A stretch of DNA of 64,000 bases, taken from Puccinia triticina. Taxonomy: Eukaryota > Basidiomycota > Pucciniomycetes > Pucciniales > Pucciniaceae. The position numbers were made by a program, and so were the translations under genes. The notes below the pieces were generated by a model. It was not told where the DNA came from. It was given only the letters and a program-made list of their open reading frames with translations, and did not search any database. Of this stretch, positions 5,563-48,337 are shown piece by piece (the first letter of the stretch is position 1; the number at the start of each line of letters is the position of its first letter). The stretch lies in contig NC_070560.1 of the NCBI RefSeq assembly GCF_026914185.1, positions 4,889,501-4,953,500 of the forward strand. The letters run 5' to 3'.

Positions 5563-5634
5563 AAAGGGAAAGGATCCTCGTACCACACAACCATCCAGCA
5601 AACAACTGACTCGTCAAGCGACAACATAAGGCCC

Positions 5635-26758: not shown

Positions 26759-26807
26759 CACCAGGGGGGGATGTGTGGCACTCTTCAGAGAGTGCCGGAC
26801 CGTAATT
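26759..26807 (+). repeat. Left terminal inverted repeat of the CACTA element
   Basis: 49 bp beginning CACCAGGGGGGGATGTGTGG. It differs from the right terminal repeat at positions 12 and 39 only. It contains an 18-bp near-palindrome that could be the transposase recognition site (inference). Confidence 0.92.
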
Positions 26808-28020
26808 CTGTCTGTCACGATGTCTGAAGTCAGTCTGATGTCTGCCCGGGATCAGCAAGAAGTAACTTCTATATTCATGTTCAAACATTGCCAAAGGCAG
26901 GAGCAATGTGAGTATATGTTGATCTGAAATCAGTCTGAACTCATGAAGATTTTGTGCTGACATGAGATGTAGGTTTAACCCAATGTCATTTTAATTCCAG
27001 TGCATTGTTTGCTTCATCCACATCACCCCATTCTGCCATACATTGCTCTTTTGTGGTGTGGCGGTTACGTGGTTCAGTGTACTCCTTGAGATGGTTGGGT
27101 GGATACCATGATTGACCACTCACACTTGAAGTGTCTGAATGTATTACTGGCAGGTAATTAGGGACAATTCTTGGCAGGTTTAGGACAGCTTTCACCACAC
27201 AATCCACTGTAATTAGGCTATTTGGCTTGCATTCACCTCCAGATCACAGTGCAACAGTTGATAATGTAATGTACCCTGGTAGCTCTATGGTTTGATGAGT
27301 GTGTCTCAGCAATGTGAAAACCGACAAAGCCTCTGTGAACTGTGGCCAAAGGTGGATCAGTTAATTGCCCCTGAGGCGGCCTGGTTGACCAGATGTCTGG
27401 CAGCTCCAACATATTTGTCATCTTCTGAAGAAGTGTTTGCTTGTGCCACCTGAGAGGTGATGGGGAAGATGTGCACCACAATGAACAGGTCATTGGGATT
27501 CCCTGTCAACAGTGAGTTGTGTGCCCCCACTGACACTTGGGGTGACTTCCACCACCACAGCAGTCATCCAAAATGATACACGAGCTACAACCTTGTCCAG
27601 CACATGTTTCAACAGCAGGAGAATCTTGCAGGTGGGAGTGGAGCCACTGTGAAAAATGAATCTGAAGAAAATGACAAAAATATGGGTGTGAGCATGTATT
27701 ATCAAAGTTTGCTCCTGGCACGGTCACAGCACTGCCTGGTGTTTGGTGATGTATGTGCTGTTGGCCAAACAGGAACCGATATGATCCTCAGGTTTGTTTT
27801 TCTCCTTGGCCCAGATTTGCACTGACTGAGGTGAAGTTTTCGGGCTACGGAGTTGAGCAAACTTCACACAATTTTCAAGTGCCCCCAACTCACATATGCC
27901 CGACCTGGCCGAGTGTGGGAACTAACATCTGCCACCCACAACGACTCGGACTTTCAGATAACTTCCCCAGAGGCCTAGTCCAACCAAATCACCTGCCCGA
28001 TCCTCAATCCATCCGTAGCC
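26808..28020. other. Left subterminal region of the CACTA element
   Basis: No gene is firmly recognised. Short frames on both strands lack motifs. The region probably holds transposase-binding sites and the promoter of the SNF2 gene, but no clear repeated subterminal motif was seen by eye. Confidence 0.4.
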
Positions 28021-30235
28021 ATGAGAAGTGCATATTGTCTTGGACAATTCATCGCACCGGTGTCGCCGTCTCCGCCCTCTTCTAACACAGACCATCACCC
28101 CCAGGTGGGCTTCCTCCAACGAGGTCATCAAGAATTGCATGTGTATCGTGCACCGCGGCAGAAAATTGGTCGCCTCAGCTCTCTGGCGAGTGAGCACCTT
28201 GGTCCCTTGCTCGGACCGATATCTTTGTGTTCGACCCCAGTCACAAGTAACAAATTCTCATCAAGCGATCCCGGGATCATGAAGGTGCGCGCCTTCGTAG
28301 TGAGCTGTCGTGGTGTTCCACCTGAGCTGCGAGGTTGTGTCTTCAGCCGTGCCAAAGATATTCACCGTGTCCAGATGGCCTTTAGGGCTGCCAACATAGA
28401 TCTGACCCCAATATGGAACTACAACCCAAGTGTCTTCTTTGACATCCCGCAGGTTGAGTTTGTCAGAACAGAAGCGCACGAGGTCACAGCTCGACAACCC
28501 TGGGTCACAAGAGCTCTCTGCCAATGCCGCACAACCTTGAAACCCCATCAGCTGACCGCCCTCTCGTTCCTCCGCAATAACGAGACGGCCGACGCAGATC
28601 CAATGGTGCTCTGGAACCACCCTACAAACGCATGGATTCGCAGTTGCGTGGATCAAACCGGTTTCAATCCGCTCGGCGACTCAACATCACCAAGAGCCCG
28701 AGGATCCATCCTGGCAGAAAACATGGGCTTAGGGAAGACTTTGACGGCGTTAGCATTCATCCTTTCGACCTTTGATTCCGCTGTGCAATTTATGTGGGAA
28801 AGTTGGTCCCACCGGTCATCTGCAACATTGGTTATCTGCCCACTAGCAACACTGACCAACTGGGAAAGTGAAATCAACATTCACTTTGAAGATCAGGCAA
28901 TCACCTACCATGTGTTCCACGGACCCCATCGGAACCAACTTACTCGGAAGGACTTTCAATCGGCTCACATAGTTCTTACAACGTATGAAATGATTGGCAC
29001 TAGTGGGAACAGACACCCAAACCAGTACACCATTGAATCCCTTGATCTCTGCTGGTACAGGATTGTCCTGGACGAAGCACAGTGAGTCAAAAATGTCCGT
29101 TGTACCTCAGACGCCACACAATCTGATTGATTTTCATTTTGACAGCCTGATGAGGAATCCAGCAGCGAACCACACGCTCAACATCCAGCAACTCAACTAC
29201 CAGTTTTTGTTGTGTCTAACTGGAACACCGGTCCAGAATCGCCTGACGGACCTCCAAAGCTTGATCACCACATTGAAGATGCCGCCGTGGGATAACGATC
29301 TCATCTGGAAGAGTTACCTTATTCCCAGAATGAATGTGGGGGCACCTGAAGCTATTAGGACTCTGTCGTTGCTGATGCGATCACTCTGCTTGAGAAGGAC
29401 AAAAGATGTTCTGTTGCAGCTACCACAGAAGGTCGAGCAGGCAGTGGTGGTGCAATATAGCGCGCAGTGGGAAAGACACTCACGAGATTTGCATGAAAGC
29501 TTCATCCAAAACTTTGGAAGACTTCGAACCTCCGAAGAGCAATGGGACGGGACCGAATTTTTCCGCCAGTTGACAATGCTGCGTCAATTCTGCAATCATC
29601 CAGTCTTTGCACGTGCGGTACTACCCATCCAACCAACATGGCGATGGCAGGATTCTGGAAAGATCGTCCACCTGATTGACAGTCTTTTGGTCTTTTTCAG
29701 CGGAGGCCGAGAGATCGAGCGTCCAAAGGCAGTTGTCTTCTCAAGTTTTGTTGGTTTTTTGGAGATGTGAGCATACAAGCCAAGTCCTACTGTGCATAAA
29801 TAACTCATGGTGATTCCTCTATTCATAGTGTTGAGCGCGCTCTGCAAGAAAGCCACATTGGATTCACTTGGCTAACCGGGAACTTAAAGGTGCAAAAGCG
29901 TGATGAGAACCTCAACACATTTCGAGGCAACAGTAATTGCAAGGTCCTGCTTGCGTCCCTGCAGGCAGCGGGGGTGGGGATTGACTTGCGATGTGCTCAG
30001 AATGTGTACTTGATGGCAAGTCCACATATTTTTTTTTTGAGCAAGACCCAGGCTGATCAGCCTCATTAAAACTTAGGAGCCTAGTTGGAACCCTGCAATG
30101 GAGTTCCAAGCAATTGATCGACTCTACCGCTTGGGCCAGAGAAACTCAGTTTGGGTGTATCGGTACTACATAAAAGGCAGCTTGGAGATGAACATTTTTC
30201 AAGTACAAAGACGCAAGTGCGAATTGGCATTGTGA
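28021..30235 (+). CDS. SNF2-family helicase-like ATPase carried by the CACTA element
   Basis: Four exons (28021-29081, 29146-29766, 29829-30015, 30077-30235) join in frame to 675 residues. Motif I ENMGLGKTLTALAFI is at about residue 233. Motif II spans an intron: LDEA plus a split CA|C codon makes DEAH. Motif III reads LTGTPVQNRLTDLQSL, then CLRRTKD. C-terminal helicase motifs are LLASLQAAGVGIDLRCAQNVYLM and EPSWNPAMEFQAIDRLYRLGQ. The third intron is GC-AG (donor GCAAGT at 30016). Order and motifs fit the RAD5/RAD16/HLTF-like SNF2 branch, but no RING finger is visible. SNF2 ATPases translocate on DNA and remodel chromatin. A role in opening target chromatin or silencing escape for the transposon is inference. 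An upstream start cannot be excluded. Confidence 0.9.
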
Positions 30236-30403
30236 GCGGGTTTCTTGTCTATCTTATGTACATGAGAGCAAGTTGAGGAGTCGCTGATGGGATTCACCAT
30301 CTAGGCTGAGTGTACCTACCGGTGGAAACAAACAATATGAATGTGCTAAGCTCTTGATGACAAACCTCACAGGATCATAGGCAAATCCTTACCTTGAATA
30401 TAT

Positions 30404-33400
30404 GTACCTTCAGCACAATGTCACAAGATTAGGCCAGACAACCGCGTCAGATGGGTTCAACAGTGCCCGCTGTGAATTCGATAGAGTTGATAAGTAACTT
30501 GCAGCGTAGCAGTTGATCGGCAAGTTGCGCGGTACGTTTTTGAAGCTGTTGGATTGTGTTATGTGTGAGGGTATTCTGCGCGCTTCAAGAATGTACTCGT
30601 GGAAAAAGGTCCGTCCGTTGGTATTGATCTTTTTCTGTGTGTAGATGGTATCCAACTGTTGAGCAAACCGGGTGAACTCGTCTGATCGCCAGGACAATGG
30701 CAGCTTGGATAGAGCTCTGGGAGGTGTGGTCTCAGTCTCAGATGTGGCCTTGATATTGTCAAACGCTGTGCGGAGGGCTGGCGAAACCGGTGTGGTAAGC
30801 CAATCCTGAATATGGCACCAAAATCAAAGTCTTTTCCCCTCAATATAACCCTCTCTGGAATACTCAAGCACCCACCTCCCTTAAGGATCAAGGCCAGGAC
30901 AACTCATACCCATCAACAGGCCCCCCTTTCTCTCTTCACCCTTTTTCCCCACCTTCTGGATACCCACCTACACCAACTCAGTATTTCTCAGGCTCCCAGC
31001 TAGGCACAAGTGGGAGAAAGTCACCCATCAGACAGAGCCAGACTATTAGGAAAGACCCTGGACATTGACCATCTTTTCTTCCCTTCCCAAACCAGCATAA
31101 CAACCCCAATTAGGATTAGCCACACATGTAATAACCATAGAGATCCCATCTTGGTTACCCCTTGTCCCCTTTGGTTTCAGCCCTTCCCTTTTCAGACTCT
31201 CATGTGATATGTAAACCCTTGTTGTGATGTTTCATTGTCTCTCCACATTTCAGCCTCTTCTCAGAACTTCCCATCTCCATAGTAGTTTCAGCCTCAGCCC
31301 CTTGATTGAGAATTTTCACTGTTTCATCTTTTCTTCCAACCACAACTCAGCCCCATAATATTTTGTATATAGTCTGCCCTCTTTGGCCCTACCTTTTGTT
31401 CCCCATCAGATCCTGTCCCAGCAATCCAGATCACTGGTCACCATTCACTAGCCTAGCTTATGCCATTAAATCAGAGTGGACAAGCTTGATAAGTCTATGC
31501 CAAATATATCAGGTTGGACAGACTTTACATTACCTTTACCTTGCTATTAGATTAGTAGAAAGTAAACCCTTAGACATACCTCAAGAATCTCCATAGCCAC
31601 ACCTTTCCTTAAGAGTCCATACTCTTATATTCTTTTTCTTGTTCCCCTGAGAGGCAGCCCTTCAAGCACCAAATCCCTCTCAAGCTCTATTCTTCCCTCA
31701 GAGTAGTTCCACACCGGAAGTGTGGAAAGTGTCTCTTGACGGTGTTGCTGAACCTTGTGTTGAGCAGGAGTAACATAAGTGTGCAATCATGATTAGATGT
31801 GTACCAAAAGAGCATACCTGCATCCGGATCTTGGTTTTGCTTTTGGATTTCTTCTTCTGAGATTGCCACTCGCCTGAGAAATGACCCAATCGAAGGCCTT
31901 CCTGCCTTCCGATGAACCATTGATGGAGCAACCCAAGGAGGATTGACGAGTTGTGAGCTTCCACAGGATCAATGAAGAATAATTTGAACGCTCCAGCACC
32001 GTAGGCATTCAACCAGTGCTTAATGATGAACTTCGCAAAGAGTTGGTTCCAGTGGGCGTCCCACGGGTGATCCCACGCAAACGTCGTACCTGGGAAATGG
32101 GAGTTCTAGAGGTCTTGAAGGAAGATGGTTCTGAATATTGAGTGAATTGTTTGAGCTTTGGCGAGCAGCGCCTCTGGGGGAATAGCATCTATTGGATGGA
32201 TCAAGATGGAGTCGGGGAGATTTGAGCCAACATGGAAGTTGTGGGCCGGCGGACGGATCTTCCAATCATCCAAAGGAGGTTTCTTGGGGGAAAAAACCAA
32301 CTGGAGCAGAGTTCGTACAAAAGCTGCCATGCTCCGGGCAGAAGATGACTGGGAGTTTGGCAGAATTGTGAAGTAGATAGCGTTGATCTTTGCTGCCTGG
32401 GATGGCGGTTTGCCATCCCACAAGGTAGCTGTGGATGATGACATAGGGCGAGAAAGATGGGAGCAGATCTGTGCCCGAAGCAGGAAGAGCAGGGGCACAC
32501 CTTAAGTAGTGCAGTCGACGCTTGAGGGTCCGGAATGACAAAGGAGTTTGTGGGGCAACCATGTCAAAGGGACGCAAGGTGCACGTAAGACAAGGGGCAC
32601 TGGAGAGGGATTGTTTGGGCTGCTAGAGCGGGCTGGGCACGTTGCAGACAGGGAGTAGCAAGCATGTCCACCGTGACGTTCGGCCGAACATCAGGGTGGA
32701 CATCTTGCACATGGGGACCTACGTCACAGGCGAAATCAACCGCTGCATCCACACAGTGTCACAAGCAAGACAGATGGCGCAGCTGTGATGCGGCCAATGT
32801 CCACCGTGACGTTCGGCCGAACGTCACGGTGGACATTGTCCACATTGACCGAGCATGAGGACATTCTCACAGATCCCTCCCTGTGGAAGGGCGGCATTAC
32901 ACATGCATAGCTTGCGCACAAGCAGCTCTGCTAGTAGATGGGCACCCAATCAAGCTCTGCCTGGCCTGATGCTGTATGCACAAACGCAGCTGCCTCCCAG
33001 AAATCAACTGAAGAGCCACGCAGGCCCATCATAAAGCCTCTTTCGAGCTGCAGCGCAGGTGTGTTATCAGCCATAAGTATGAAGGCACAGTGTCCGAGTC
33101 CTTGTGACACACCGGATGTGGTCTCCCCAAACTCATGGTTCTCACCCAGCTCAGCCAACATCCTGAAGGAGGACCTGACATCATCTTGAAGAGAGATGAG
33201 CAGGGAGAAGACAGATCTGTGTCTTGTAAGACACCTTTTCCATATTACATACACTCCACGCCACCTGATATGTGTTGCAGGGAAACCAAAGCCCACTGGT
33301 CACAGTGTTCTACATATGGGCATAGGATATTATGGAGATAGCTTCAGACACAGAGCGGGTGAGCGCGAAAGGCCAATGTAGTGTTCCCTGTGACTGTGGC

Positions 33401-33861
33401 AGGGGGAGTAAACTGTCAGGGGCAGTGACTTGCCAGAGACCAAAATGCCACAAGGAACTCACAATTTGGCCGCAGCCGACGGCTACAAGAGGCCACCGTT
33501 TGCGCTGTTGGTACTCTCAGATACGCTTGTCTGACGCTTCACAGGACCTGTGAATCGGAACATCAGACCTTCTTGATGACGGGAGAGACCGATGAATTTA
33601 TGGATTAGACATACCCTTGCCCTCTCGATTTCTTATGGCGTTCCAGGTTGCAAAGACATCTGGCACGGCCCATCGAGGGAGCTTCATGTCACCGGCGTTG
33701 GCATACAACTTCTGCTGAAACAGGAAGGCCTGGTCAAGATGGATCCCACAGTTCGAAACAGCATGTGACCCGTCCACAGTACGCTGCATTTCGACATCAA
33801 CAAGTGTTTGCTTTTCTTGCAGCCACAGTAGTTGTAGAGGAGTAAAGCTATGATCTTGCAT
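30404..33861 (-). CDS. Unknown multi-exon protein of the CACTA element (minus strand)
   Basis: Several minus-strand blocks look coding and are bounded by splice-like sites. They are 33861-33613 (MQDHSFTPLQLLWLQEKQTL...), about 33190-32940 (DDVRSSFRMLAELGENHEFG), 32498-32106 (MAAFVRTLLQLVFSPKK), about 32070-31740 (GAGAFKLFFIDPVEAHNSS) and 30697-30410 (MSWRSDEFTRFAQQLDTIY). Exon joins were not resolved. A pyrimidine-rich stretch (30810-31690) interrupts the series and may be an insertion or a long intron. Two CGGCCG palindromes (32664, 32795) lie inside the span. No domain is recognised. The model is tentative, and two adjacent genes are possible. Confidence 0.35.
30810..31690. other. Pyrimidine-rich non-coding stretch
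   Basis: C/T-rich sequence with many CCCTTTT and TCACCC runs, of different composition from its surroundings, lying between probable exons of the minus-strand gene. No terminal repeats or coding frames were recognised. Confidence 0.35.
32664..32703. repeat. CGGCCG-centred palindrome P1
   Basis: 40-bp imperfect palindrome; arms start ATGTCCACCGTGACGTT and meet at CGGCCG (32681-32686). First of seven related sites within the CACTA element. Confidence 0.9.
32795..32838. repeat. CGGCCG-centred palindrome P2, perfect over 44 bp
   Basis: Arms CAATGTCCACCGTGACGTT and the exact inverse around CGGCCG (32814-32819). Every base pairs across 44 positions. It is 112 bp from P1, same family. Confidence 0.93.
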
Positions 33862-34430
33862 GACTTAGCAGCTGGAAAATGAGGTGGAAATGACAGGAGG
33901 ATAGATGATGCTCAGTGGGGCAGATTTTATAGAGGTATCAGGGAGGCTTGCGGACACCAGATTGTCCTCAGCTGATGTTTGTCAGAATTGTGGCTCACAT
34001 TTTAACCCTGAACGTCACCACCATGCTTGCCGCTCAGTTGAGTGCGGAGGAGCTGTTGGGGATACAGCGGGGAAAGCAAAGCTGGCTCTAGATCTGACTT
34101 CACGCAACTAATTCAGCGGCCTACTTTGTAAGTCCAATGTAGTTCGGCGTCTGAAAAAGAATTGTGGTGTTAGAAGACAAGAGAAGAATGGCAATTGAGA
34201 GGGAGAGTTGTCACAGCTGCGCCAAGCCTCACCGTCCACGCGTGTGGCGGGGTTGATCCATGGATATACAGTGATGGGAGAACAGTTGAGTTGAGGTGGT
34301 CGTGCAAGAAGTGCAGACTTCCCTGCCTTGCCTGCAGCACTTCGGTTAGGTTGTGCAGCCACAGACTCCTGTCCCTCCATCAACCTGCTCAATTGCTAAC
34401 AAAGATAGCCAGACATCTGACACGTGATCA

Positions 34431-37400
34431 GTGGAATCGACAAGGCCGATGGGCAACCGAGGTGTGTACGTCTGTCTCTGCACGCAGTATGGCTGTGACA
34501 AGACTCAGCACAAAGAGGACGGACAAGGCATTGTGCCTGGACGAGTTTTGACGCATTGGGTGTTTCAAGTCCATCAGTCAAAGATGTCCTTCGAGGAATC
34601 CAAGCGCTCTGCTTCTGCATGCGGAGACGCGGGACCTTCAAATGAAAGTGTTGTAAGTCTGAACAGTCAGGTGTTCCTGTTGGCAGGAGATACTGATCTA
34701 CCCTCTTCATAGCGCGTTCCTGTTGAATCTGCGCCTGCCTCAACCGAACCGACTGGCAGTGCAGTCACCACCATTGTTCTGAATGAAGCTTTTTGCAAAC
34801 AGGTGATGCTTCAATTGGTGTCCTCTGTGTTTGCAAACAAGCTCAGTAAAGGTGCCGCGGTGGATTTCTTGAAGGCTGTCCGGGCAAACGTGATCCTTCT
34901 CGCGCAAATCTGGAGTGGGAAAACTTCAACTATCATCAATCCACACAAAATTCTCCAGCAGATCCCCAAGACTCAGGAAGCCGTTTTCCACCGCCTGGGG
35001 TTGAATCCAATCCTCACGAGCTGTATATGCTGCCCAAAATGCTTTGCACTGTACTCCACAGATGCAAAGCCTGGGAGCAACCCGCCACGATGCACTCAGC
35101 CTTTTCTATCGCCTAAGCAGGGTTTTTGCAAGTGGGCCAAGTCCGAGAATATCACGCCAAAATGTGATGAAGCACTCTTCAAGGTCAACATCAACAAGAG
35201 CGGAGCTGTCGTCCCAGTCCGGAAATTCTCCTACGTCTCACTGCAATCGTGGCTGAAGAGCCGGCTGCTGCACCCTCCGTTTGAAGCCTTGCTGGATTCG
35301 TCTTTGGCCGCAAACCACCGGCGCAACGACGAACCAATGGAGGATGTGTGGCATGGCCGGGTTTGGCAAGAATTTGAGGATAGTAATGATGGTACAGGAA
35401 GATATACGGAACATTCTGGTAACCTTGTGTTCAGTCTCTATCTCGACTGGTTCATCCCAGAAGGAAGCTCCAATCTTGGAAAGCACACGACAATTGGCGC
35501 CATTACGTTAGTTTGCCTGAACCTACCTCTGACTCATTGATACAGGTTGGAGAATATCTTTCTCTTCGGGATCATCCCAGGCCCGGTGGAGCCTAAACTG
35601 GAACAGATCAACCACATACTTCGCCCTCTAGTCACGGAGCTGCAGCAATTTTGGAAGGGGGTCTGGTTTGAATCAACTCCCCTTCATCCAACCGGTAGAA
35701 ATGTTCGTGCTGTAATTTTCCCACTGATTGCGGACCTACCTGCCCTGCGCAAGACGGCTGGATTTGGAAGTCATGCCGCCACTCTCTTCTGTTCTTTTTG
35801 TCTTCTCAATAAAAACGACCTAGACAAGACAGATCCCGCCAAATTTCCTTCACGGACTGACGAGTTCCACCGGCAACTCGCAGACGCGTGGTTGCAGATC
35901 CAAAACTTCACAGAGAGGAAGGCATTTGCCAAGGCGAATGGTGCAAGATGGAGTGTACTCAACGAGCTCCCCTATTGGCGACCGGTTCAGCACTGTTCAA
36001 TCAAATTGATGCACGCGTTGGTGCTGGGTGACCTGAAAGATCACAGCATGCGATTCCTGAATCTGCCTGCAGCTGGAGCGCAACTGAACAAGATTCAGGA
36101 GCTAGACCAAGCATGGCAGAATGACGACGTGTATAAGGAGCCGCCTTTTGCTGAGAAGCTGCGATCTGGAAAGCGTTCCAAGGGGAAAAGAAAAATGGCA
36201 GACAATGCAAGCGAAATCAATTATACACCTGAACACAAACGACCTACTAAGAGGACCCGTAGAACTCTTGTTGAGGTGCATGGTGGAAGCGCAAAGGATC
36301 AATGTCCCTCAGCTCACGCGGAGACTCGTGGCAGTGGCGCAAACTCAGACACCTCATCTAGTCATTCCTATTCGCTACGGCTGAGGAAGAAGACTCTATA
36401 CACCGAGTGTGAGGAGGATGAAGACCCTGAATCAGAAGAAGGAGGAGGAAGCGATAGTACGGTGAAGGGGGGAAACTGCACACAGAGGCCTCCTTGTGAA
36501 GAAAACAATGATTGTCCCCGATTGTTGCCAGAAGAACTGGATATTGTTTGTCGAACTATCCTTCACACCGTGTTGCCCACCTGGATTGACAGAGTGCCCC
36601 AAAACTTGGGATCGGCTAATCATGGCTCCTTGAAGGCGGCAGAATGGCTGCTCCTTTACAAGGTCTACTACACCATCGCCCTAATACCTCTTTGGGTACA
36701 AGCACTGGAAGGTGCTGCGACCACAGAAAGCAGCCGCAGAGTCTCTCTGCTGTTAGAATCGACCACCACCCTTTCTCAGGTGGCTCATTTCATAACCCTG
36801 CCCAGAATACGAGCGCAGGACTTGAATGAGCTTGAAAGCCTCATCTGTCAGTACCGCAAATGTTTACGGAGCGGGTGGCCCTCAAAACCAAGCAAACCTA
36901 ATTTGCATATGACCCAGCATTTCTCCGACGTTATCCAAAGGTTTGGTCCGCCTCGGTCGACTGCAGCATGGGCTCAAGAGCGTATGAATGGCATGCTACA
37001 GAGGTTGCCAACCAACCACCATCTTGGTCAGTTGTTTTTTATGTTGGTCTCTGACTTGACGATTCCCCCGTTTTGCTAACCACACAATCCTATATTCTTG
37101 CAGAAGACATCCCTAAGACACTGCTTACAAAGTGGCATCTCAACTCAACCCTCCATTCTCTCCAGCAAGACCCAAGCTATGTAAACACGTTGGTGGCAGA
37201 GGAGGTAGAACTAGGGCTCCCGAAGATGTTTGACCTTGAGCAGGTGGTGTTTGTCAAATGGAAAAGGATGGTTGCTGCACAACTTATGGCACGCACTCCG
37301 CCAGGAATGAAACCGGCACACGTCAGATTGGTCCCCACAGTGGAGAAAGTTAAAACTGTTCGAGTCAACAGGAAGACAGTCACCACAAAGGAGGTTCACG

Positions 37401-37829
37401 AGGGAAACTCCTTAGTGGAGTTCTACCTTGGCAAAGATCAACGTTTTGGTGAGGTCGTGAATATCTTCCGCTCCAACCAATCACCAGACGTAACATGGCT
37501 TGTAGTGAAGCCAATCAGGGAACTACATAGGAGTCAGGACCCATATCGCGACTATCCCGATCTCAACTGCCGCTTAATTGAGGCTGACAAGGAGGCAAGC
37601 GCGGTGATTCACAGTGACCTTCTCATTGGTCATGTTGCGATTATGAGGCACGCTGCCGGAACATTTGGACTGGCCCAAGAAACCATCAGTGCTGTTGGTC
37701 TAGGGACCTTGGTAAGTCACTCGGCATGTGCATTCTTCCAAAGAGATATGCACTCATCCTGATTGTGGCTGTTTGGTCCATATTTGCCTGGTCTAGGGGT
37801 GGGAAGGCCTCGGTGATGAGTCAGCTTAG
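34431..37829 (+). CDS. tnp2-type CACTA transposase
   Basis: Five exons (34431-34652, 34713-35506, 35546-37026, 37104-37711, 37797-37829) join in frame to 1045 residues. The N-terminus has a Cys/His-rich segment VYVCLCTQYGCDKTQH. The tnp2 (Transposase_21) core includes CICCPKCFALY, SLYLDWFIPEGSS (first catalytic Asp position of the family), LENIFLFGIIPGPVEP, PLIADLPALRKTAGF (second Asp) and FCSFCLL. A basic, acidic low-complexity insert (KRSKGKRKM to EDEDPESEEGGG) follows. Then come SKPNLHMTQHFSDVIQRFGP and AWAQERMNGMLQRLPTNHH, matching the C-terminal ERxNGxLQ motif. A final domain has ELHRSQDPYRDYPDLNCRL. The protein is expected to bind the 49-bp ends and catalyse cut-and-paste. Frame integrity across four introns suggests function. 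Confidence 0.9.
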
Positions 37830-38213: not shown

Positions 38214-39898
38214 ATGAGTACCAACGATGCTACTTCGGCCGAACAACCTGGAAGCAATGCCAATGGAGACTCTCTTCCTGGGCATGACAAGGGTTGGATC
38301 GGCTTGTCCCTGAATTTCAACAGCGGAGCACCGCCGCCCCGGGTGAAACAGTGATGCAGACCGATCAGCAAGGCTTGTGGAGTTCTACTGTTCAGAAAAC
38401 TTGGATAAAGTGACTGACTTCCTCATTATTTGTGTGCAGACCCCAATGCCACCGCTGCGGCTCAGCTTCCCGCTGACCTTGACGACCCCTTGCGCTTGGA
38501 TCCCGAGTTTGTTGTTGCCAACGCCAGGAAAGCTCGCAATCAGGCTGAAGAGCATGAGAGCAAGCGGCGATCATCCCGGCGTGTGAGGGGAATTGCAGCA
38601 AAGGCACCTCTCCCGGAGCACTACGACAAGTTCTCGAGAAGTATCCAAAATTTTGTCAAGTTCTTTCTTGGTCAGCCGGAGAAACCTCAAGACTACCCTC
38701 AAGCGCCAACTCCCGAGGAACTGGCCGGCCAACATTGGGTGGAGAAGAGGAGTGCGGTCATCAACAAGCAACTCAACAGGGTGCGCAAAGCTCTCGTTGG
38801 CAGACCAGCAGCCGAGATCAATTATTATGTCGGGGTCGCTGAGAAGGAAATCCGGCGCAACATTCCGTTACCGCCATTCACTCCTGCGGTCTCAAAAGCT
38901 ACGGGCAAAAGCGTTCGTCCCATCAGTCCTCACACTAAATCCGAAGTCGAGAGGGCAATGGCCTTGTCGGGTATCTCCAGAGTCACATTTCAATGGGATG
39001 TCGGCCACACCGGCAATACTTTGTCATGGAACTCAGCTGTCATTGAGGTCTTAGCATCAAAGGCCGTTGAGTGGATGCGGCGCACGGCACCCATCACAGA
39101 CACCCAAGCAGGTCAGGCGCCTGGAATCCTTGGCCGGTGGCTTGCAACCAAATCACGCAAAATGCGAGATTTTCAGAACATGAATGTCGAGGAATACAAC
39201 AAGTTGAAGAGCGCTAAATCCACCAAGGAGCAATACATGCGATGGCGGAAGAAGGTAAATAATGACTTGCAATCATTTTCCTTGCTCCCCTCAAATGGTG
39301 GTTAAGCTAAATGTCGGTGTTTTGACAGATTAAGGATAACCGATGTGCTATCGCGGCAAGAGTCTTTGAAAAGAACATCCAACTGGCGCATATCGTGGAG
39401 CAGAGAGAGTGCGGATCTGATATTGAAGATGGGCCGGACAAAGGCGCACCGATTACACTCATCCCGGACTGGCGTAGCGACGACCTTACCACAATCTTAC
39501 ACCATCTTGACAAGATGGTTATGGCTCGCGCAGAACACCCCAAAACGATTGCTGCAAACAACAAAATCTACCGACGCTCCGCACGGAACTTCAAAACTAC
39601 TAAAGGGATCGTTGGCGTCCCACGCGGTCTGCCTCTCGACTGTTACAGCCCAATCTACTGGAATAAGCTAGGTTCATTCAAACAAGAGACCATCTCTAAG
39701 GTCCCAGCCATCGGTCTAAATGTGATTGCTAGGAGCATGCAACAAAAGTGCTCCCGTCAAGTTGGCCCCAGTAATCCACCGGGTAGCGCGCCTCACAACC
39801 CCGATCTATCCAACGCTGGACCCCGCCATTCTGGGGGAGGGGGGGCAGGCGGAGATTCGACCGACGCACCTGGCGGCTCCATGCAAATGGATGCATGA
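38214..39898 (+). CDS. Unknown CACTA-encoded protein A
   Basis: Two clear exons are 38440-39254 and 39329-39898 (intron GTAAAT...TTGACAG; frame kept), encoding about 460 residues. The first has a basic helix (KRRSSRRVRG), then HYDKFSRSIQNFVKFFLGQP and GRWLATKSRKMRDFQN. The second has IKDNRCAIAARVFEKNIQ and a Gly-rich tail SGGGGAGGDS. A likely first exon begins at 38214 (MSTNDATSAEQPGS) with a donor at 38343, but its phase is off by one relative to exon 2, so that join is uncertain. No known domain is recognised. Its place right after the transposase suggests an accessory DNA-binding role like plant TnpA (speculative). Confidence 0.6.
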
Positions 39899-40223: not shown

Positions 40224-40261
40224 TGTCCACCGCGACGTTCGGCCGAACATCACGGTGGACA
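40224..40261. repeat. CGGCCG-centred palindrome P3
   Basis: Imperfect palindrome of the GACGTTCGGCCGAAC subtype (like P1 and P2), in the gap between unknown protein A and unknown protein B genes. Confidence 0.88.
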
Positions 40262-40447: not shown

Positions 40448-40497
40448 TGCACTTGTCCACCGTCATGTACGGCCGTACGTTGCGGTGGACATGTGCA
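40448..40497. repeat. CGGCCG-centred palindrome P4 (left half of a compound palindrome)
   Basis: 50-bp imperfect palindrome with TGTACGGCCGTAC at the centre (40467-40478). It pairs as a whole with P5, so P4 and P5 form a roughly 108-bp inverted repeat. Confidence 0.88.
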
Positions 40498-40504
40498 GAC
40501 ATGT

Positions 40505-40554
40505 CACACATGTCTACCGCAACGTACGGCCGTGCATGACGGTGGACAAGTGCA
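40505..40554. repeat. CGGCCG-centred palindrome P5 (right half of a compound palindrome)
   Basis: The inverse of P4 with a few changes, centred on 40527-40532. The arms end GGTGGACAAGTGCAC, mirroring the start of P4. Confidence 0.88.
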
Positions 40555-40559
40555 CAGGG

Positions 40560-41357
40560 CGTGTCGTGCGCGACGGACCCATACGCGCAGCAGTTGCCGC
40601 GCACGTGCGGTACTTTGCCAGGCTCTCCACGGACCGCAGGTGGCCAGGCTCCCTTGCATAGGTGGTGCCAGCTGCGCCGCATACAGAGGCATCGATTCAC
40701 TGTAGCACCTCCCGGTCCAGACCCGACGGGTTCCCCTCTGCGTGGCACAGGGGACCTCGTTGACGTGAGTGGGAGCGGGTATCTGGTGAAACTCACGTGT
40801 TGTCCACCGTCATGTACGGCCGTACGTTGCGGTAGACATGTGTGGTAGAGAGGTTGGAATCAAGCGCCTTGCTTCCCATCAATCCCCATCAGCATGCCCA
40901 ATCCTGGAGGAGATGTTGAGCATATCTGCTGTGGCCTTTGGCCCACCACATCCAGTGAATCCCTCAGCCGTGCGACGCATGTGGGACCAGCGCTGACCCA
41001 CTCATGATGATCCATTCTGTGAGCTACACACAGTAGATCGTAGCTGCTCACGTCAGCCCTGTGTCATCAACTCCCAAACAGGCCTTTCTCTAATGTCCAC
41101 CAAACATATTCATGTGAGATTGCGTCAGCGGCGGGTAGAGTGGCAATGGCTGCACCCTCAATGAAAGGTAGGCTGCATGTGCGCACAAAACTCTTGGCCA
41201 CATCACAAAGGACCGGTGCTGTCTATAAAAGCCCCACTCCCAATCACGCTGGCCTCTCCTGTCCCCCATCGCTTCGTCTCATTCTGCTCCGACTCGCCTT
41301 CCCAACGCCTGACACCGCACACACCAACTTCACACGACCAACCTCTCACACCCAACC
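40560..41357 (+). promoter_or_regulatory. Upstream region of unknown gene B
   Basis: Non-coding stretch with palindrome P6. A TATA-like CTATAAAAG lies at 41221-41229, about 130 bp before the ATG at 41358, and is followed by a C/T-rich leader, a common layout for fungal promoters. Confidence 0.5.
40797..40842. repeat. CGGCCG-centred palindrome P6
   Basis: Same subtype as P4 (CATGTACGGCCGTACGTTG), centre 40817-40822, upstream of the unknown protein B gene. Confidence 0.88.
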
Positions 41358-43864
41358 ATGGATGATTCCGAGCAGCCAGGCCTACCAACCTCAAGATCTC
41401 CTGCTGAAGACCCTCCTCGCGCAATGTCATCCACTCCACCTCCGAGTAAGGAGACTTTTTCCTGTCTAGCTAGCCACTCGATCCTGATTGTCTTGTGTCT
41501 ATGTTTGTCATAGCCGAATATGAAGTTGAGCAGAACCTCCCGCCCAAACCACTCCCCGCACCGTCTTTCACGCAATTTGCACTCCAGTCGGCCTTTGGTG
41601 CACCCCAGCGTTTGTTAAATCCTGAGGAATCCATCCTTCGCACTGAAATCCAAGAAATTACCCCGGAAGAATTCAGTCGTTCTATTGAAGCTGCCGCCCG
41701 CTCAACCAAAGAGATCCTTTCCCTTAAGCTTCTCCGCAGCTGTAAACGTATGGCAGAAGAACTTGCAGCTTCTCTCTCCAAAAGAAAACACCGTCAGCCC
41801 CTTCAACATCCCCCCTTGCATCATTGCTGTTCGCTGTTCACTGACACCTCTCTACAATAGGATGGGAAGCCACAGGTGTTGTTTCTGACGATGAGGACAT
41901 CAAAATCACCGACCTCTCCCGAGCCGGCCCCTCAACCGCCAACAAGACTTCCAAATCGCGCCAAAAACCTCGTTCAAGCCGTAAGCCACGCTCCACATCC
42001 ACCAAGGCCGTGAATCTGCTCGCCAGCAACCCAAATAACCCATCGATTGCGTCGGACACGGGCACACGTGACAGTTCCAACCTTCCTCCTGATCGCATGG
42101 CCCCAGCTTCCGCGACTGGCTACCAATCTTTGGCTGGAGTGAGACAACCTCTGACCTCTACACCCCAGACCAGCACGCCGCTCCCGGACATGAACATCGG
42201 TGAAACGCCAAGCACTACGGTACTTTCAGGTGCCAGAACTTTTGAGCCATGGTCTCCTCTCACGTCGCCTGCTTCAAGCAATTCCACCCGGAATGCGGTA
42301 CCGCAAATCGGAACTGTGACATCACCCAATCAAACTTCTCCCAATTCACCTTTGCAACCAAATGACAATCAAAGCGGGCAACGTGCATCTCCTGCTTTGT
42401 TCAACCCCGCGAGTCGCGAAGCTAGTCCTCTTGCCTCGGAGCAGCGTCCAGTACAAACCTCCACCGCAACCACCAGCGCTATCGCCGGTCAGCCACACGA
42501 TGCCACCCCAGACACGGCTGCGGGAAAGCTTACAATCATCAAGTTCGACACAATCCGCGCGCACATCATCAGCATCCACAATACCTTTGAAGGCACCAAA
42601 CCTTCTTGGGCGAAATATCGCACTACTTGGGAATCACTAGCGCCCTTGCTTATCAATTGCGCACACGCCATCCAACCTCAAAGTCCCATCGCGCCATCAA
42701 TCCACCACTTGCAACGCACAGCCAGCTCGTACACTTCATGGATTGAGAGTATCACATCACTGGGTGAGTTTATAGTTGATTCAAGGTCCCTTCTGCCCAG
42801 TCATTTAAACAACCCTCCGTTTTTTCTCAGCCGCACAGTTTTTAGCGCCGTCACAACATGAGCAATGGTATTGCCCAGATCAGATTGACTTTCCCAAGCT
42901 GACCAGTTTTGGCGACAAGGAGAAAAATCTCCCACCAGGCTCCTTCATCTCAACGGTTACCAAGACTAATCATCCAGAATCAGTCCTTGTTTGCTGCCTG
43001 TTCCGCCTCCTGCACCCGCCACAATACGTGCAAATTGAATGGGCCAGGATTATTGCCGCTTCTGTGGAGTTGATGGCGGACAACCTCTTCAAACCACCTC
43101 TAGTCACCTCCAATCCCAGCACCGATCACGTCACTCAGGCTGTAGATGCCCTCTGCTATCTCAACACTGTCAAGAACTCCTCATCCACCTTTACCTCATC
43201 GATTGAGAGTGATAACCCTTTGCCTCCAAGCAAGCAGCGTCTCCACTTGGTTGATGTGCTGCACAAATTCCACAATGTCATCATAGATGTTATCATGGCT
43301 TACATCATATACCAAACTCACTACCTTCGCGAGGCGCCCTTGACCTCAGCTCAGAAGAAGGCAAACAACCGCGCCAATCAACAGCCCCCTCAGGACACAC
43401 CCCAAACAACTGTTGCTAGCACTTCCGACAATCCTTCAGACGTAGCTTGCCTCCCCGAAGACGCCGCCCACCACCTCCAACTATATCAAAAAAAACAAAA
43501 TTATCAGCCACTTATCTATTTCGTCCTTGCGGGAGTACGGGGTCTGTTTGTGACATCGAGGGACCACCGGATTGCAGGAACTTCGGCATGTATGTCATTC
43601 ATCCAAGCGATGTCAATCATCAAACAGCACTCAACAACCATCCACGTGCCCAGAGAACCTATTTGGAAGAATACCTCTGCATATCTGGTCAAGATCTTCT
43701 CTCCAATATTCCAGTCACCGGACAAGATCTGCCCCCTTGCTCACATCAAATTGCCTACACGAATTGAGCTCGCAGAGGTGATATTGAATGATTTCCTCAA
43801 TCAGTGGGAGACCTGGAAACCGAGTTCCCCTTTTCTTCTCCCGCATGCTACTCAGTCTAAGTAA
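41358..43864 (+). CDS. Unknown CACTA-encoded protein B
   Basis: Four exons (41358-41445, 41514-41747, 41861-42763, 42831-43864) join in frame to 752 residues. All introns are short GT-AG. The N-terminus (MDDSEQPGLPTSRSPAEDPP) is disordered, followed by an acidic/helical block LRTEIQEITPEEFSRSIEAA. Next is a basic Ser/Arg stretch (SKSRQKPRSSRKPRSTSTK, likely a nuclear signal), a long Ser/Thr/Pro-rich linker, and a C-terminal helical domain with FRLLHPPQYVQIEWARII, RLHLVDVLHKFHNVIIDVIM and YQPLIYFVLAGVRGLFVTSR. No family is recognised. Clean exon structure and a good upstream TATA suggest it is expressed. Function unknown; retention inside the transposon suggests a role in its life cycle or a captured host gene. 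Confidence 0.7.
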
Positions 43865-44268: not shown

Positions 44269-45173
44269 TTATAATGACCCGGGCAGGGTAAGACTCCTCC
44301 ACTGAAAAACCCTATCCCAACCAAGTCTTACGCCCTCTTCTCCCTCTTTTGCCTGATCCTCGACGGTTTCTGCCAATCTTTGAATTTGAGCTTGAATCGT
44401 GTGCTGGGATGGTTCCTCAAGTTGTAGGGGCTCTTCTGGGAGCGGGTTATCTTTGAAGCGTGCTCCACCTGCCAACAACGCACTGTCAGCCAACAGACTC
44501 TGAGACAAAAGCTGACTGCACTCACACCCAACGCAAGTAAGCTGCTTCCCGACAGTGATGCTTGACCTGCCACACCGCCAAACCTGATGTAATCACCTCG
44601 TCTAGTAGTCTGAAAGATCCCGTGGGCTTGTGCGCTGGTTGCCGCAAGCATGATTCGACCAAGTTTAGACTAGCCCAATCACCGTCAGCACATGTTCACT
44701 TCAGTAGCTCCGGAATAACCAGAAATATGCTGCTTGAAAATGCTGACCTGACTCTTGGCCTGATCCACAACTTCCACAGACCCCACACAGCCAACAATTG
44801 GATTGATGTGGACCTTGACAACATAGACCGTGCCAACAGCGTGTGCATGTTGAAATTCGTGAGCAAGAGGAAAGTGTCCCCGGTGAACCTGCCAGTTGAG
44901 CCGCTCCACACGAATGACTGGGTGACTGGCTCCAGATCGAACAAATAGTTGGCCAGAAAAAAATAATTGAGTGCAGAAGTCGTATAGTATGGGTGGAACC
45001 GTTGCCCCTGAAGACTTGAGGACAACCTCATACTCTTGGTAGGCTGCGAATGAGGATTCAGGAGGGAGCTGATGAGACACAAGGCAAGTTCGGATGTGTA
45101 ACTCGTCTCCAACACATTCTATCCGGGTGCAATCGGTGTTGGCGAGATGAATATTCCCGGCGACTTCAATCAT
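44269..45173 (-). CDS. Unknown CACTA-encoded protein C (minus strand)
   Basis: The first block starts at 45173 (MIEVAGNIHLANTDCTRIEC) and runs to about 44700, with beta-rich looking sequence (HVINPIV-type stretches). A second block (44669-44530) reads GRIMLAATSAQAHGIFQ to LLALG. A GT-AG intron (GTGAGTGCAG to TTGGCAG) then joins in frame to GGARFKDNPLPEEPLQLEE and a coiled coil IQAQIQRLAETVEDQAKEG. The apparent first intron would be only about 30 bp, unusually short, so that junction is doubtful. The gene is convergent with unknown gene B. No known domain. Confidence 0.5.
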
Positions 45174-46270
45174 CTTGATGAGAATCAGGGATTAGTGGGA
45201 CCTTCAGTCCTCGAAATATTTATGTTGGGCATAAGTCACCCACCTCTCTCTTGTGGTTAGACTGACCAAATTGTGCCCATGCCCGAGCCTCGCCAAGTGT
45301 GCCTTTGACCTGGTAAGAAAGGGTCAGATCCACATATTAGCTGTCCTTGATGTACGTCACTGAACAGGTGGATGAATGATTGCATGGGGAAATCCTGGCC
45401 CTTCTGCATTTCCCTTTCACTGGTCATGGTCCTGCGTCACATCACATCACCCCCTGACTAATGCTTTGGCTCTTGTAGGCCCGAATTTGGTTGATGGTGG
45501 GGTTGTGATGGCTTCTTGCCGGGGCCCCACACCCTTTCACCTTTGGAGCGGTGACGTACCGTTGGCCTTTGTACTCCAGATCTACATGTCCACCCAATTG
45601 TACGGCCGTTCATCGTGGTGGACATCCCACCTTGCCTGGGATGGCCAACCGCATCTCGAAATCAGGCTCCAGTGCAGATGTGAAACGCAGGTGCGGCTGC
45701 CAGCAGTTTTCCACATGGCGGCAAACTTCTGATAGCTTCTTGCTGCACCATCACACTGGGCTACCCAGCCACGAACTCAAGTCCAATAACAACAGAAACT
45801 GGGGAACAGCCTGTTGTAGTACACAGGCTGTTCCCCAGCTTGCCTTATCTGCACCTGGTGTCCCAAAAAGGAGGTGTTCTTTCTTGTGGGCTCATCGGAC
45901 CCTAAACCCCTCTCTACTCCAACGTCTCAAAAGACAACCGCAGTTGGCCAATTACCTTCCCTCACCATTTGACATCACTGGCAATGCTTGCTGCACATAT
46001 TCTGCGCGGGCACAGTGGGATCAAGGTTGTGTGATACATTTCCCGGCGCAGAGATATCGACGCCTCACCCAGTGGGTCTTTCAAAATACCCCGGCGGGTA
46101 TTGTTAAATTGGACATCACAGTTGTCCTCTGTGGGTTGCTTCTTTCATTCGTGCTCGCGAGAGCCACCCGGCACCTCCTGTGGCGGGCACGTGGACTATC
46201 ACATGACATCGAGATTGTAATGCAAAATTCATCTATCACACTGGGGTTCCCGCAACCCCAACTTTGATGA
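45174..46270. other. Gene-poor CACTA interior with palindrome P7 and a hairpin
   Basis: An open plus-strand frame (45551-46267) exists, but its composition looks random and it has no splice or domain support. Structured features are palindrome P7 (45586-45625) and a perfect hairpin at 45799-45838 (16-bp arms CTGGGGAACAGCCTGT, 8-base loop). Confidence 0.4.
45586..45625. repeat. CGGCCG-centred palindrome P7
   Basis: Most diverged copy; arms ATGTCCACC/GGTGGACAT, centre TACGGCCGTT (45601-45610). Seventh site within the CACTA element. Confidence 0.8.
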
Positions 46271-48285
46271 GGGACCACTACAAGATCCCCCCTTTGGAGC
46301 AGAACCTGACCCCAAAAGTCTCACACGTTATGCGGAACCTGGTGTGCACGTCACAGGGGGGGGGGGGGGGGGGGCGGGCAAAAGGACACTGTGTTTGGCG
46401 GTGGCCATCCTGCCAATTAATTGATCATGAGTGTCTCAAGGTTGCTTGTCACTCAAGGGCTTTTATAAGGGCCGCAGATGACTCACACAAAGCGCAATAT
46501 TTACCACACTGCATTCAGCCTATGAGGCGCTGAGGAGACTGTCAGCTCTCACAGGATCTTGTGGTATGGGAAGGAGACAGCATGAATATAACAGACACAT
46601 CCATGGGTGTCAGGATATATGGGATTGTCGGCAGGCTTGAATCTGCCAGAAGTCTCTTTGACACTCCGTGGGACAGCGGGAAACATTGGAGGAGCAAATA
46701 ATGACAATCCAGTGAGCTCATGTGGCAGCAATACACAAAACTAACAGCCAGTCCAAGGAGCAAAATCAAATTCCATCTATTGATTCTCTCAATAAACCAG
46801 CACAGCTCATTCATGGTCTGCATGGTGCATGGGGCTCCTGGTGTCCATGGAAATGAGATTGGAGGGAGGATGGCTCATGGAATACAGCATTTAAACCCAA
46901 TCTACTTCACAAGAAAGACAGATCTAATGTTAGCTTTGTGATGTACAGTGGAGTGGCTCATTGGGGCTGGACGGTGCATGGGATGTGGAGCTAGCTGAAG
47001 ATCACAACATAGCGCCCATGGCGAGGGTTAAAATCTTGGGGAGGTAGTGTGACACTCATTGTGTCAGTTTGGTTGGCTTGGGAACTTGGAGGGGAGATCT
47101 GCTGGGCCTTCAGGTGATGTGTTGTAGCCAGGCTCTCCTACACTGTTTCACCACAATAGTGGTGGCTGTAATGCAGGTATCTGAGGAGTGACAGCAGTGC
47201 TCTTCATCCTGCAGAATAGGTATGTGGGTGTATCCTATCATAGTTGGGTCAAGGAAGCCCTAACCCATAGCATGAATGACATGGAGATTTGCGGGTGGGA
47301 ATTTTGAAAGAACAATATTAACAATTTCAGTGAGGTGAAGTGCATTCTCACGAGTTTCATGCTCAAACACAGAGCAGTGAAATGGACCCATGCAGACCAA
47401 AATTTTCCCAACTGACCCATGTGGTTGGTTACAGACCCACTGTTTTCTGGGAATAAGTTGTGTATCTGGCACTGGCCTGAAGTTGGGCCAGCATTTGGTA
47501 GATGGTGATTGAGCAGTCCTTTGTGGAGGGAGATGACATGCTTTTTTTGCAAGGAGAAACAGACCCATCCATATCTCAGCCACTCAGCATGGCTGATCTC
47601 ATTTTTTTCCGGAGGCCAAGGGACCAGGTACTACTCCGGGGAACCTTTGAGGTGGGTTCATGTATAACACAACAGGAGCTAGCATAATTTACTGTTCAAA
47701 AATAACACACCATGGATCCACATACATGCAAGAATGATATGGATGTGTCAGTGGGGAGGGATTCAGGATGTTGGGCTGTAAGATGTGCCAGATGTGCAAC
47801 ATCTGATGATTACACAGTTCTCAGAGACGGTGCAGCTCAGGTGGTGAATGTGCCATTGAAACATGTCATGGGTCATCATGAACGCTGGCTCAAGACTTCT
47901 GAGCCTTCTCTGGTGGCCATTGCATCCCTGCTGCCCTGAAGGTGTGGGACCAAACATGGTGGTTGATCCTCCCACAGTTGCTGAACAAGCCACTGGGAAA
48001 CGGTACAAGAAATCATGTCACTTGTCAAACATAAGAGTCAAGCCCTGCAAGGCCCAAATTCCATATATGAAATTCATGGTGACAGCAGCTGATGAGTTCA
48101 ATGTGGATTCCAAACTAGTTGTGAAATCTGTTCAACCTGAGTTGAAATGGAGTTCCCCAACGCTTGATGTGAACTTCAAATTCACATGGTTTTAGCCAAC
48201 ACATGAGATTGGCCTTGCTTCTTCACAACATTAACATGGGACCAACATCAAGTTACAGTTGACATCAGCCAAGGTTACTGAAAGA
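46271..48285. other. Right subterminal region of the CACTA element
   Basis: About 2 kb without convincing genes. A run of about 19 G residues is at 46356-46374. Several weak frames on both strands lack motifs. It presumably contains the right-end recognition region. Confidence 0.4.
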
Positions 48286-48334
48286 AATTACGGTCTGGCA
48301 CTCTCTGAAGAGTGCCACACATTCCCCCCTGGTG
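48286..48334 (-). repeat. Right terminal inverted repeat of the CACTA element
   Basis: Read inward it begins CACCAGGGGGGAATGTGTGG. It matches the left end at 47 of 49 positions and is followed by the TGT duplication at 48335-48337. Confidence 0.92.
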
Positions 48335-48337
48335 TGT

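What the first reader, a model, noticed from the sequence alone, without database searches (positions are those of the whole stretch)
26759..48334. A 21.6-kb CACTA-like transposon carrying an SNF2 ATPase and at least four other non-transposase genes
Seen: 49-bp inverted ends with two mismatches, TGT on both sides, a five-exon tnp2 transposase with an open frame, a four-exon SNF2-type ATPase with an open frame, and three unknown multi-exon genes plus one tentative gene. Known: fungal CACTA/EnSpm elements usually encode a tnp2 transposase and few other proteins. Inference: this is a giant, possibly active, cargo-bearing CACTA element. The consistent open frames argue that the cargo is under selection or very recent. 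I know of no description of this gene set, but I cannot search for one.
Basis: partly seen in the sequence, partly recalled or inferred. Interest (0 to 1): 0.95.

Follow-up and report, generated by a model that had tools for sequence, protein, structure and literature searches.

The report
Transposon with its own chromatin remodeller
A 21.6-kb jumping gene of the wheat leaf rust fungus belongs to a large family that carries, besides its transposase, a chromatin-remodelling motor, several unknown genes and self-symmetric DNA signals, apparently as its own standard equipment rather than as picked-up cargo.

Summary
Confirmed: window 26759-48334 is one DNA transposon with 49-bp inverted ends (2 mismatches) and a TGT duplication; uninterrupted copies of its target repeat carry one TGT. 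The host is Puccinia triticina. It is not a one-off with cargo: the SNF2 ATPase, tnp2 transposase and four unknown genes recur in one order and orientation. 61 of 167 gene clusters in this genome hold all six; two of the unknowns also occur in P. graminis and P. coronata. All six are constrained like the transposase (dN/dS 0.15-0.30 against a 70-77% relative). TIR pairs have perfect 3-bp duplications in 15 of 15 tested. New: 38-bp palindromes upstream of three genes differ between families yet stay symmetric. Short gene-less elements share only ends and one palindrome with full copies of the same end type. Best reading: a multi-gene CACTA/EnSpm element that directs its own remodelling or regulatory complex to family-specific palindromes. 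Structure is shown; the mechanism is inferred. This copy's gene M has an in-frame stop.

The parts
26756..26758 (.). left target-site duplication TGT
   Evidence: single TGT in uninterrupted repeat copies
26759..26807 (+). left terminal inverted repeat (49 bp)
   Evidence: 120 genomic places of its core
28021..30380 (+). SNF2-family ATPase gene, five exons (28021-29081, 29146-29766, 29829-30015, 30077-30231, 30305-30380), 699 aa
   Evidence: model checked; PF00176 4.6e-55 and PF00271 1e-16; best PDB match RAD5 6e-44; 113 genomic hits of exon 1
30416..32444 (-). gene M, unknown function; conserved pieces 30416-30814, 31797-32102, 32109-32444; in-frame stop at 32106-32108 in this copy; C-terminal part resembles that of gene B
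   Evidence: (120 genomic hits)
32665..32702 (.). palindrome (17 of 19 pairs) upstream of M
32798..32835 (.). perfect 38-bp palindrome upstream of M
33610..33864 (-). conserved coding stretch N (separate small gene or a first exon of M)
   Evidence: dN/dS 0.22 against copy D_C14
34449..37829 (+). tnp2-type DDE transposase gene, five exons, 1039 aa
   Evidence: model checked; PF02992 1.1e-5 for the main exon, below the curated cut-off; DDE, CxxC and H motifs conserved in relatives with one exception; 84 scored hits of 289 candidates
38214..39898 (+). gene B, unknown function, 487 aa model (database relatives carry Pfam accession PF26792, name not available here)
   Evidence: (133 hits)
40224..40261 (.). 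palindrome (17/19) upstream of C
40454..40491 (.). palindrome (16/19) upstream of C
40511..40548 (.). palindrome (14/19) upstream of C
40801..40838 (.). palindrome (15/19) upstream of C
41358..43864 (+). gene C, unknown function, four exons, 767 aa; PtB15_3B525 of Puccinia triticina is 100% identical over residues 325-767, the part compared
   Evidence: (116 hits)
44331..45173 (-). gene D, unknown function, two conserved stretches (44331-44669, 44739-45173)
   Evidence: (127 hits)
45587..45624 (.). palindrome upstream of D, degenerate here (14/19)
   Evidence: 19/19 and 17/19 at this place in divergent copies F and G
48286..48334 (-). right terminal inverted repeat (49 bp)
48335..48337 (.). 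right target-site duplication TGT

Best explanation
It is a member of a large family of multi-gene CACTA/EnSpm-type cut-and-paste transposons of rust fungi. Its core set is a tnp2 transposase, an SNF2 (Rad5-like) ATPase and at least four proteins of unknown function (M, B, C, D), in a fixed order. SHOWN: the ends, the 3-bp target duplications, empty sites, recurrence and order of the genes, long-term constraint on all six genes, and palindromes at fixed places that change sequence between families but stay symmetric and persist in short elements without genes. INFERRED: one of the element's unknown proteins binds the family's own palindrome as a dimer and brings the element's SNF2 motor (or the transposase complex) to DNA of its own family. 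That would open silenced copies, switch on genes M, C and D, and help mobilise full and non-autonomous copies.
For: 61 of 167 clusters hold all six genes in order, 2 of 167 show any order violation, 96 of 111 entered SNF2 hits lie in clusters with at least three of the genes. dN/dS against copy D_C14: SNF2 0.21, M pieces 0.22, TNP 0.22, B 0.15, C 0.30, D 0.25, all six bootstrap upper bounds at or below 0.39. 3-bp duplications in 15 of 15 TIR pairs, 13 different triplets. Empty sites. SNF2 motifs V and VI are kept in 6 of 6 relatives, VI with one substitution in F. Palindromes: 7 of 7 full copies have sites upstream of M, C and D; 37 of 43 M-upstream regions have a site with at least 14 of 19 pairs, best of 215 shuffled regions 13; 108 both-sided changes against at most 50 in 500 shuffles. 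3 of 3 short elements with defined ends (L106-L108) share, inside the element, only ends and one palindrome with the five full copies of the same end type (own, A, B, D, E).
Against: No protein has been shown to bind the palindrome. B and C gave no sequence match in the PDB; the model of a B homologue had no structural match and the model of C was too poor to use (pLDDT 42). 6 of 43 regions lack a site with 14 of 19 pairs, and the site upstream of D has only 14-15 of 19 pairs in five of the seven full copies. Against the youngest copies (A, B) 11 of 14 dN/dS intervals include 1. In the two most divergent copies fetched (F, G) no TIR pair was found. SNF2 motif I departs in F and in the window's own copy, and copy G departs at the expected catalytic E motif of the transposase. 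Two of the three short elements (L106, L107) are 98% alike, so they are not independent. The palindrome sites were chosen for symmetry, and the shuffle test does not remove relatedness of the copies.
Confidence: 0.75

Rival explanations
1. The palindromes are only promoter operators: an element protein represses or activates M, C and D (autoregulation), and SNF2 acts elsewhere.
For: Sites lie upstream of M, C and D in 7 of 7 full copies. In the list of F-type sites, 7 of 9 copies with three sites show spacings of 7.1-7.3 and 5.9-6.2 kb.
Against: Short elements without these genes keep one palindrome near their middle (3 of 3 with defined ends), which a pure promoter role does not predict.
Confidence: 0.3
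2. The SNF2 ATPase works directly in transposition (clearing nucleosomes at ends or target, or handling strand-exchange intermediates, as Rad5-type motors handle branched DNA) and not in anti-silencing.
For: Best PDB relative is the repair motor RAD5; the gene begins about 1.2-1.4 kb inside the left end in the five full copies with both ends found.
Against: No direct evidence either way. The Rad5 assignment rests on sequence similarity of the motor; no RING domain was reported. What Rad5 does is recalled.
Confidence: 0.3
3. Host genes captured as cargo, in the manner of Starship elements.
For: Size and gene number.
Against: Same genes, same order, same orientation in 61 clusters; constraint equal to the transposase; no tyrosine recombinase in the proteins scanned, transposase is tnp2-type.
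Confidence: 0.05
4. A segmental duplication with chance inverted ends, not mobile.
For: Some copies score identically in several gene searches.
Against: Exact breakpoint at CACCAGG with unrelated flanks in an identical pair, 15 of 15 perfect duplications, empty sites.
Confidence: 0.01

Closest known systems
EnSpm families of Puccinia (Kojima 2025, PMC12730594; abstract, passages, sections 26 and 34 read)
   Same: Termini 5'-CAC..GTG-3', 3-bp TSDs, transposase between Plavaka and EnSpm, related families reported from P. triticina and other rusts
   Different: That paper treats families with a TET/JBP gene; the word SNF2 does not occur in its main text. No six-gene set and no palindromes in what I read; its supplement and the Repbase entries were not readable here
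Enlarged EnSpm of the red alga Chondrus crispus (one passage of the review PMC6431247)
   Same: CACTA/EnSpm of 16-20 kb with 4-5 ORFs instead of 1-2
   Different: A red alga; gene identities not given in the passage
VANDAL transposons and VANC anti-silencing proteins of Arabidopsis (abstracts of PMC5735166, PMC10398659)
   Same: Element-encoded proteins act on non-coding target motifs that vary between related elements
   Different: Targets are tandem repeats, not palindromes; no SNF2 motor in the abstracts; the elements are Mutator-like (recalled)
Spm/En TNPA-TNPD of maize (recalled, not looked up)
   Same: Transposase plus an accessory DNA-binding protein acting on repeated cis motifs
   Different: Two proteins from one transcription unit; motifs are subterminal
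Soybean 20.5-kb CACTA element (title and abstract start in the listing, PMC2613891)
   Same: Comparable length
   Different: Plant element; no SNF2 gene (0 occurrences of the word)
Starship elements (recalled, and abstract starts in the listing)
   Same: Giant fungal transposons
   Different: Tyrosine recombinase and variable cargo

Membership tests
CACTA/EnSpm (CMC clade) | 5'-CAC..GTG-3' inverted ends | tested here: met
   CACCAGG at both ends of 15 of 15 pairs; the plant core CACTA itself is not present; no pair found in copies F and G
CACTA/EnSpm (CMC clade) | 3-bp target-site duplication | tested here: met
   15 of 15 pairs, 13 different triplets; empty site with one TGT
CACTA/EnSpm (CMC clade) | tnp2-type DDE transposase with CxxC and H motifs | tested here: met
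   PF02992 E 1.1e-5 but 25.2 bits against a cut-off of 28.6. D, D and CxxC motifs kept in 6 of 6 relatives, the MHA.xLGDLKDH stretch in 6 of 6, E in 5 of 6. Which residues are catalytic is my reading of the motif order given in PMC12730594
Plavaka | PF18759 transposase and CATCA..TGATG or TGT..ACA ends | tested here: not met
   PF18759 E 0.012, 15.4 bits against 26.3; ends are CACCAGG; end criteria from PMC12730594
KDZ | 8-bp TSD and KDZ transposase | tested here: not met
   3-bp TSDs; no KDZ match in Pfam scans of the element proteins given; 8 bp is stated for Zisupton in PMC12730594
Starship | tyrosine-recombinase captain | tested here: not met
   no such domain among the element proteins scanned
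SNF2 ATPases (Rad5/16-like) | bipartite SNF2 motor with helicase motifs | tested here: met
   PF00176 and PF00271; RAD5 best PDB match; motifs
TET-positive Puccinia transposons | TET/JBP dioxygenase gene | tested here: inconclusive
   no Pfam hit of that kind in the proteins scanned, but the right 3 kb were not scanned and the PU type may be missed
VANC-like anti-silencing systems | element protein removing silencing at family-specific motifs | not testable with these tools
   needs methylation and binding data

The most novel reading that the evidence does not exclude
Rust fungi host a diversified family of transposons with a sequence-addressed chromatin remodelling system of their own. An element-encoded protein reads a family-specific palindrome and recruits the element-encoded SNF2 motor, so that each family opens and mobilises only its own full and non-autonomous copies. 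Palindrome and reader co-evolve. Much of the SNF2 domain expansion reported in wheat rusts (PMC5295586, Table 3, read) would then be transposon equipment rather than host gene regulation.
Probability: 0.35. Interest if true: 0.9.

Novelty: new variant of a known kind. Interest (0 to 1): 0.74.

Why it matters
DNA transposons usually carry one or two genes (recalled; the review passage says the same of EnSpm). Here a whole conserved set, with an ATP-driven chromatin motor, is kept together over large divergence in one genome, and two of the unknown genes are found in two further rust species. If the palindromes address that motor, this is a natural sequence-specific chromatin opener and a fungal counterpart of plant anti-silencing. 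It also bears on genome annotation: 96 of the 111 SNF2 exon hits entered lie in transposon gene clusters, so the reported SNF2 enrichment of wheat rusts, listed under transcription factor regulation, may be largely transposon-borne.

Tried and rejected
Cargo and segmental-duplication readings were tested and rejected (see rivals). Structure prediction: a B homologue (P0035) gave pLDDT 62 and no PDB match with E of 0.001 or better; gene C gave pLDDT 42 and was not searched further. PDB profile searches of B and C found nothing up to E 1. Pfam accession PF26792 of B relatives did not appear in the Pfam copy here, so it has no name. The first SNF2 codon comparison used two wrong frames and was redone; the first SNF2 splice model had a wrong site and was corrected. 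Fetching beside the SNF2 end of three near-identical copies on C7 and C14 missed their ends. Loci L110 and L111 share the palindrome with copy G, but their own ends were not found. Literature: ten searches showed, in the titles, abstract starts and passages seen, no description of an SNF2-bearing CACTA element or of these palindromes; several listings were cut to the best 8-20 papers, the library holds open-licence papers only, and Repbase was not searchable.

Rows dropped before counts: I entered 111 of 113 SNF2, 84 of 84 TNP (capped list), 117 of 133 B, 113 of 116 C and 112 of 120 M hits, and 126 of 127 D hits. Left out were second fragments, short or weak pieces, and 13 B matches of 25-30% identity. 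The 52 palindrome sites passed a filter on position and on bases near the centre and come from 34 of the 43 regions (43 distinct sites).
Full report
What is there. The finding is real. The element runs from 26759 to 48334 (21,576 bp), with inverted ends that differ at 2 of 49 positions and TGT on both outer sides. The genome has 122.8 Mb in 18 contigs. Gene C matches PtB15_3B525 of Puccinia triticina at 100% over the 443 residues compared, so I take the host to be the wheat leaf rust fungus.

It is mobile. A 29-base core of the ends occurs at 120 places with up to 3 mismatches and at none in the reversed control. I looked at 15 pairs of ends: five full copies including this one and ten further pairs of 2.4 to 30 kb. 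All 15 have perfect 3-bp duplications, with 13 different triplets. In the two other full copies fetched, F and G, I found no pair of ends. The flanks of this copy, joined with one TGT, gave 113 matches; 27 of these cover the whole query, the best at 92% identity. Two of the whole-length ones were fetched and read through the junction with a single TGT; a 3-bp length difference lies elsewhere. Two copies with all six genes, on contigs 15 and 18, are identical in the 218 bases fetched from CACCAGG inwards, with the break exactly there and unrelated flanks. So the family has moved recently.

The genes are a set. Of 167 clusters of the entered hits, 61 hold all six in the order SNF2 - M(minus) - TNP - B - C - D(minus), 82 hold at least five, 108 at least three, and 2 show an order violation. 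Identities to this copy go down to about 42% for SNF2, 39% for M, 39% for B, 44% for C and 29% for D among the entered hits.

Selection. Against copy D_C14 (70-77% amino-acid identity) dN/dS is 0.21 for SNF2, 0.22 for the M pieces, 0.22 for N, 0.22 for TNP, 0.15 for B, 0.30 for C and 0.25 for D; bootstrap upper bounds are 0.20-0.39 for the six genes and 0.43 for N. Against the young copies A and B divergence is about 1-3% at silent sites, and 11 of 14 intervals include 1. This is what one expects if the lineage is kept under selection while individual copies decay, though power is low. This copy shows such decay: gene M has an in-frame stop at 32106-32108 where copies A and B have longer open frames, and the copy is 928 bp longer than A and B left of the first palindrome. 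Copies A and B have stops in their transposase.

Proteins. The SNF2 protein has the full two-lobed motor (PF00176 4.6e-55, PF00271 1e-16), and its closest solved relative by sequence is RAD5 (6e-44). In the transposase the D, D and CxxC motifs are kept in 6 of 6 relatives and the E motif in 5 of 6, copy G departing; its Pfam match to tnp2 is significant but below the curated cut-off. The pieces and relatives of M, B, C and D that I scanned have no Pfam match of note here. The C-terminal parts of M and B resemble each other at 24-29% identity, so one may be a duplicate of the other. The search needs shared short words, so it says little about distant relatives. In P. coronata, B and C relatives bear consecutive locus tags (PCANC_23954 and PCANC_23955) and contigs of the same length, 48,085. 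That suggests the same neighbourhood, though I did not see the contig.

Palindromes. All seven full copies examined have palindromes of about 38 bp upstream of M, upstream of C and upstream of D. The site upstream of D has 14-15 of 19 pairs in five copies and 19 and 17 in F and G. The sequence differs between families: the outer arms read TGTCCACC, TGTCCTCC, TGTCACC, TGTCACAC or TGTCATGA, with the matching complement on the other side. I fetched the region upstream of M from 36 further loci, chosen to spread over identity, out of 120 M hits. With the seven full copies, 37 of 43 regions have a site with at least 14 of 19 pairs; the best of 215 shuffled regions had 13. A stricter scan found palindromes in 20 of 36 regions against 1 of 720 shuffles. 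Over 43 distinct sites from 34 regions 88.7% of cells pair, with 108 cells changed on both sides; 500 shuffles of the right arms gave at most 74.8% and 50, and sliding by 1-3 bases gave 22-27%. Sites were chosen for symmetry and the copies are related, so these numbers are not probabilities. Among listed F-type sites, nine copies show three sites each; in seven of them the spacings are 7.1-7.3 and 5.9-6.2 kb, and two have one longer interval (the list shows the first places only).

The palindrome is not tied to the genes. Three short elements of about 2.44 kb with intact ends (L106-L108; L106 and L107 are 98% alike, L108 about 72% to them) share, inside the element, only the ends and one palindrome near their middle with the five full copies of the same end type (own, A, B, D, E). 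With F they match at end-like sequence only, and with G not at all in that sense. Two other short matches (32 and 39 bp) fall in the flank of this copy and in the left part of the G stretch. A pattern of this palindrome occurs 204 plus 212 times (the two strands of symmetric sites count separately) and never in the reversed control. Five of the listed places lie about 1.1-1.3 kb from a listed end (both lists are cut). Two further loci, L110 and L111, match copy G at the palindrome only, and the flank of copy A at minisatellite sequence. So the palindrome probably acts in cis on the mobility or chromatin state of the element, besides any role in expression.

Mechanism. My best reading is that an element protein (M, B, C or D) binds the palindrome and brings the SNF2 motor, the transposase, or both. 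The nearest published logic is VANC of Arabidopsis, where element-encoded anti-silencing proteins act on motifs that vary between related elements (abstracts only). Rust transposons with TET/JBP genes have been proposed to resist methylation (Kojima 2025, section read), so a second anti-silencing device in rusts is plausible. Not shown: binding, remodelling, any effect on silencing.

What is known. Kojima 2025 reports EnSpm families of Puccinia with CAC..GTG ends and 3-bp duplications, and related families from P. triticina, so the superfamily assignment is not new. SNF2 does not occur in its main text, and the ten literature searches listed in Tried and rejected showed no SNF2-bearing CACTA element in what I saw of them; Repbase could not be searched. 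Large EnSpm elements with 4-5 ORFs were reported in Chondrus (one passage of PMC6431247). Cuomo and co-workers (name recalled; PMC5295586, section 15 read) list PF00176 as enriched in wheat rusts (log2 ratio 2.56) under transcription factor regulation. 96 of the 111 SNF2 hits entered here lie in transposon gene clusters, so that enrichment may largely count transposon genes; I did not redo their count.

Noticed in passing
window 52830-54500 and 49970-51060: Large arrays of about 43-bp and 40-bp units that are themselves inverted repeats (ACCGGTCATCGAG..); palindromic sequence of this kind occurs in fetched loci L106, L107, L110 and L111, and related units flank this element.
   Followed up: partly
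window 3042-8233 and 60330-64000: Two copies of a repeat, 94-96% identical in pieces, about 55-57 kb apart.
   Followed up: no
window 5563-6789 and 57413-58171: Copia-type retrotransposon remains: integrase region on + (PF00665, PF22936) and reverse transcriptase on - (PF07727, below cut-off).
   Followed up: no
window 15493-15855: Harbinger-type transposase fragment (PF13359, 9.2e-19).
   Followed up: no
window 22409-24538 (-): A 709-aa open frame without Pfam match whose N-terminal part looks like a signal peptide (by eye); a possible secreted protein next to the element.
   Followed up: no
G000:C15:1751451, C3:5685331, C11:1937912 and 10 more places: Thirteen distant matches to gene B (25-30% identity, open frames of 236-313 aa, two with a stop inside), each about 20 kb or more from any entered hit; perhaps another mobile or domesticated relative.
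   Followed up: partly
L074 (G000:C9:1249050-1249790), about position 683: A second, unrelated 54-bp near-perfect palindrome upstream of gene M in this copy.
   Followed up: no
window 20017-20460 and 20534-20680: Short tandem arrays (51-bp unit and 21-bp unit GGGTACCCGCCCACGGGTGTC).
   Followed up: no
G000:C3:580201-611700 (copy B): The 29-kb copy owes its length mainly to about 8.3 kb between palindromes in the B-C region, probably a nested insertion.
   Followed up: no
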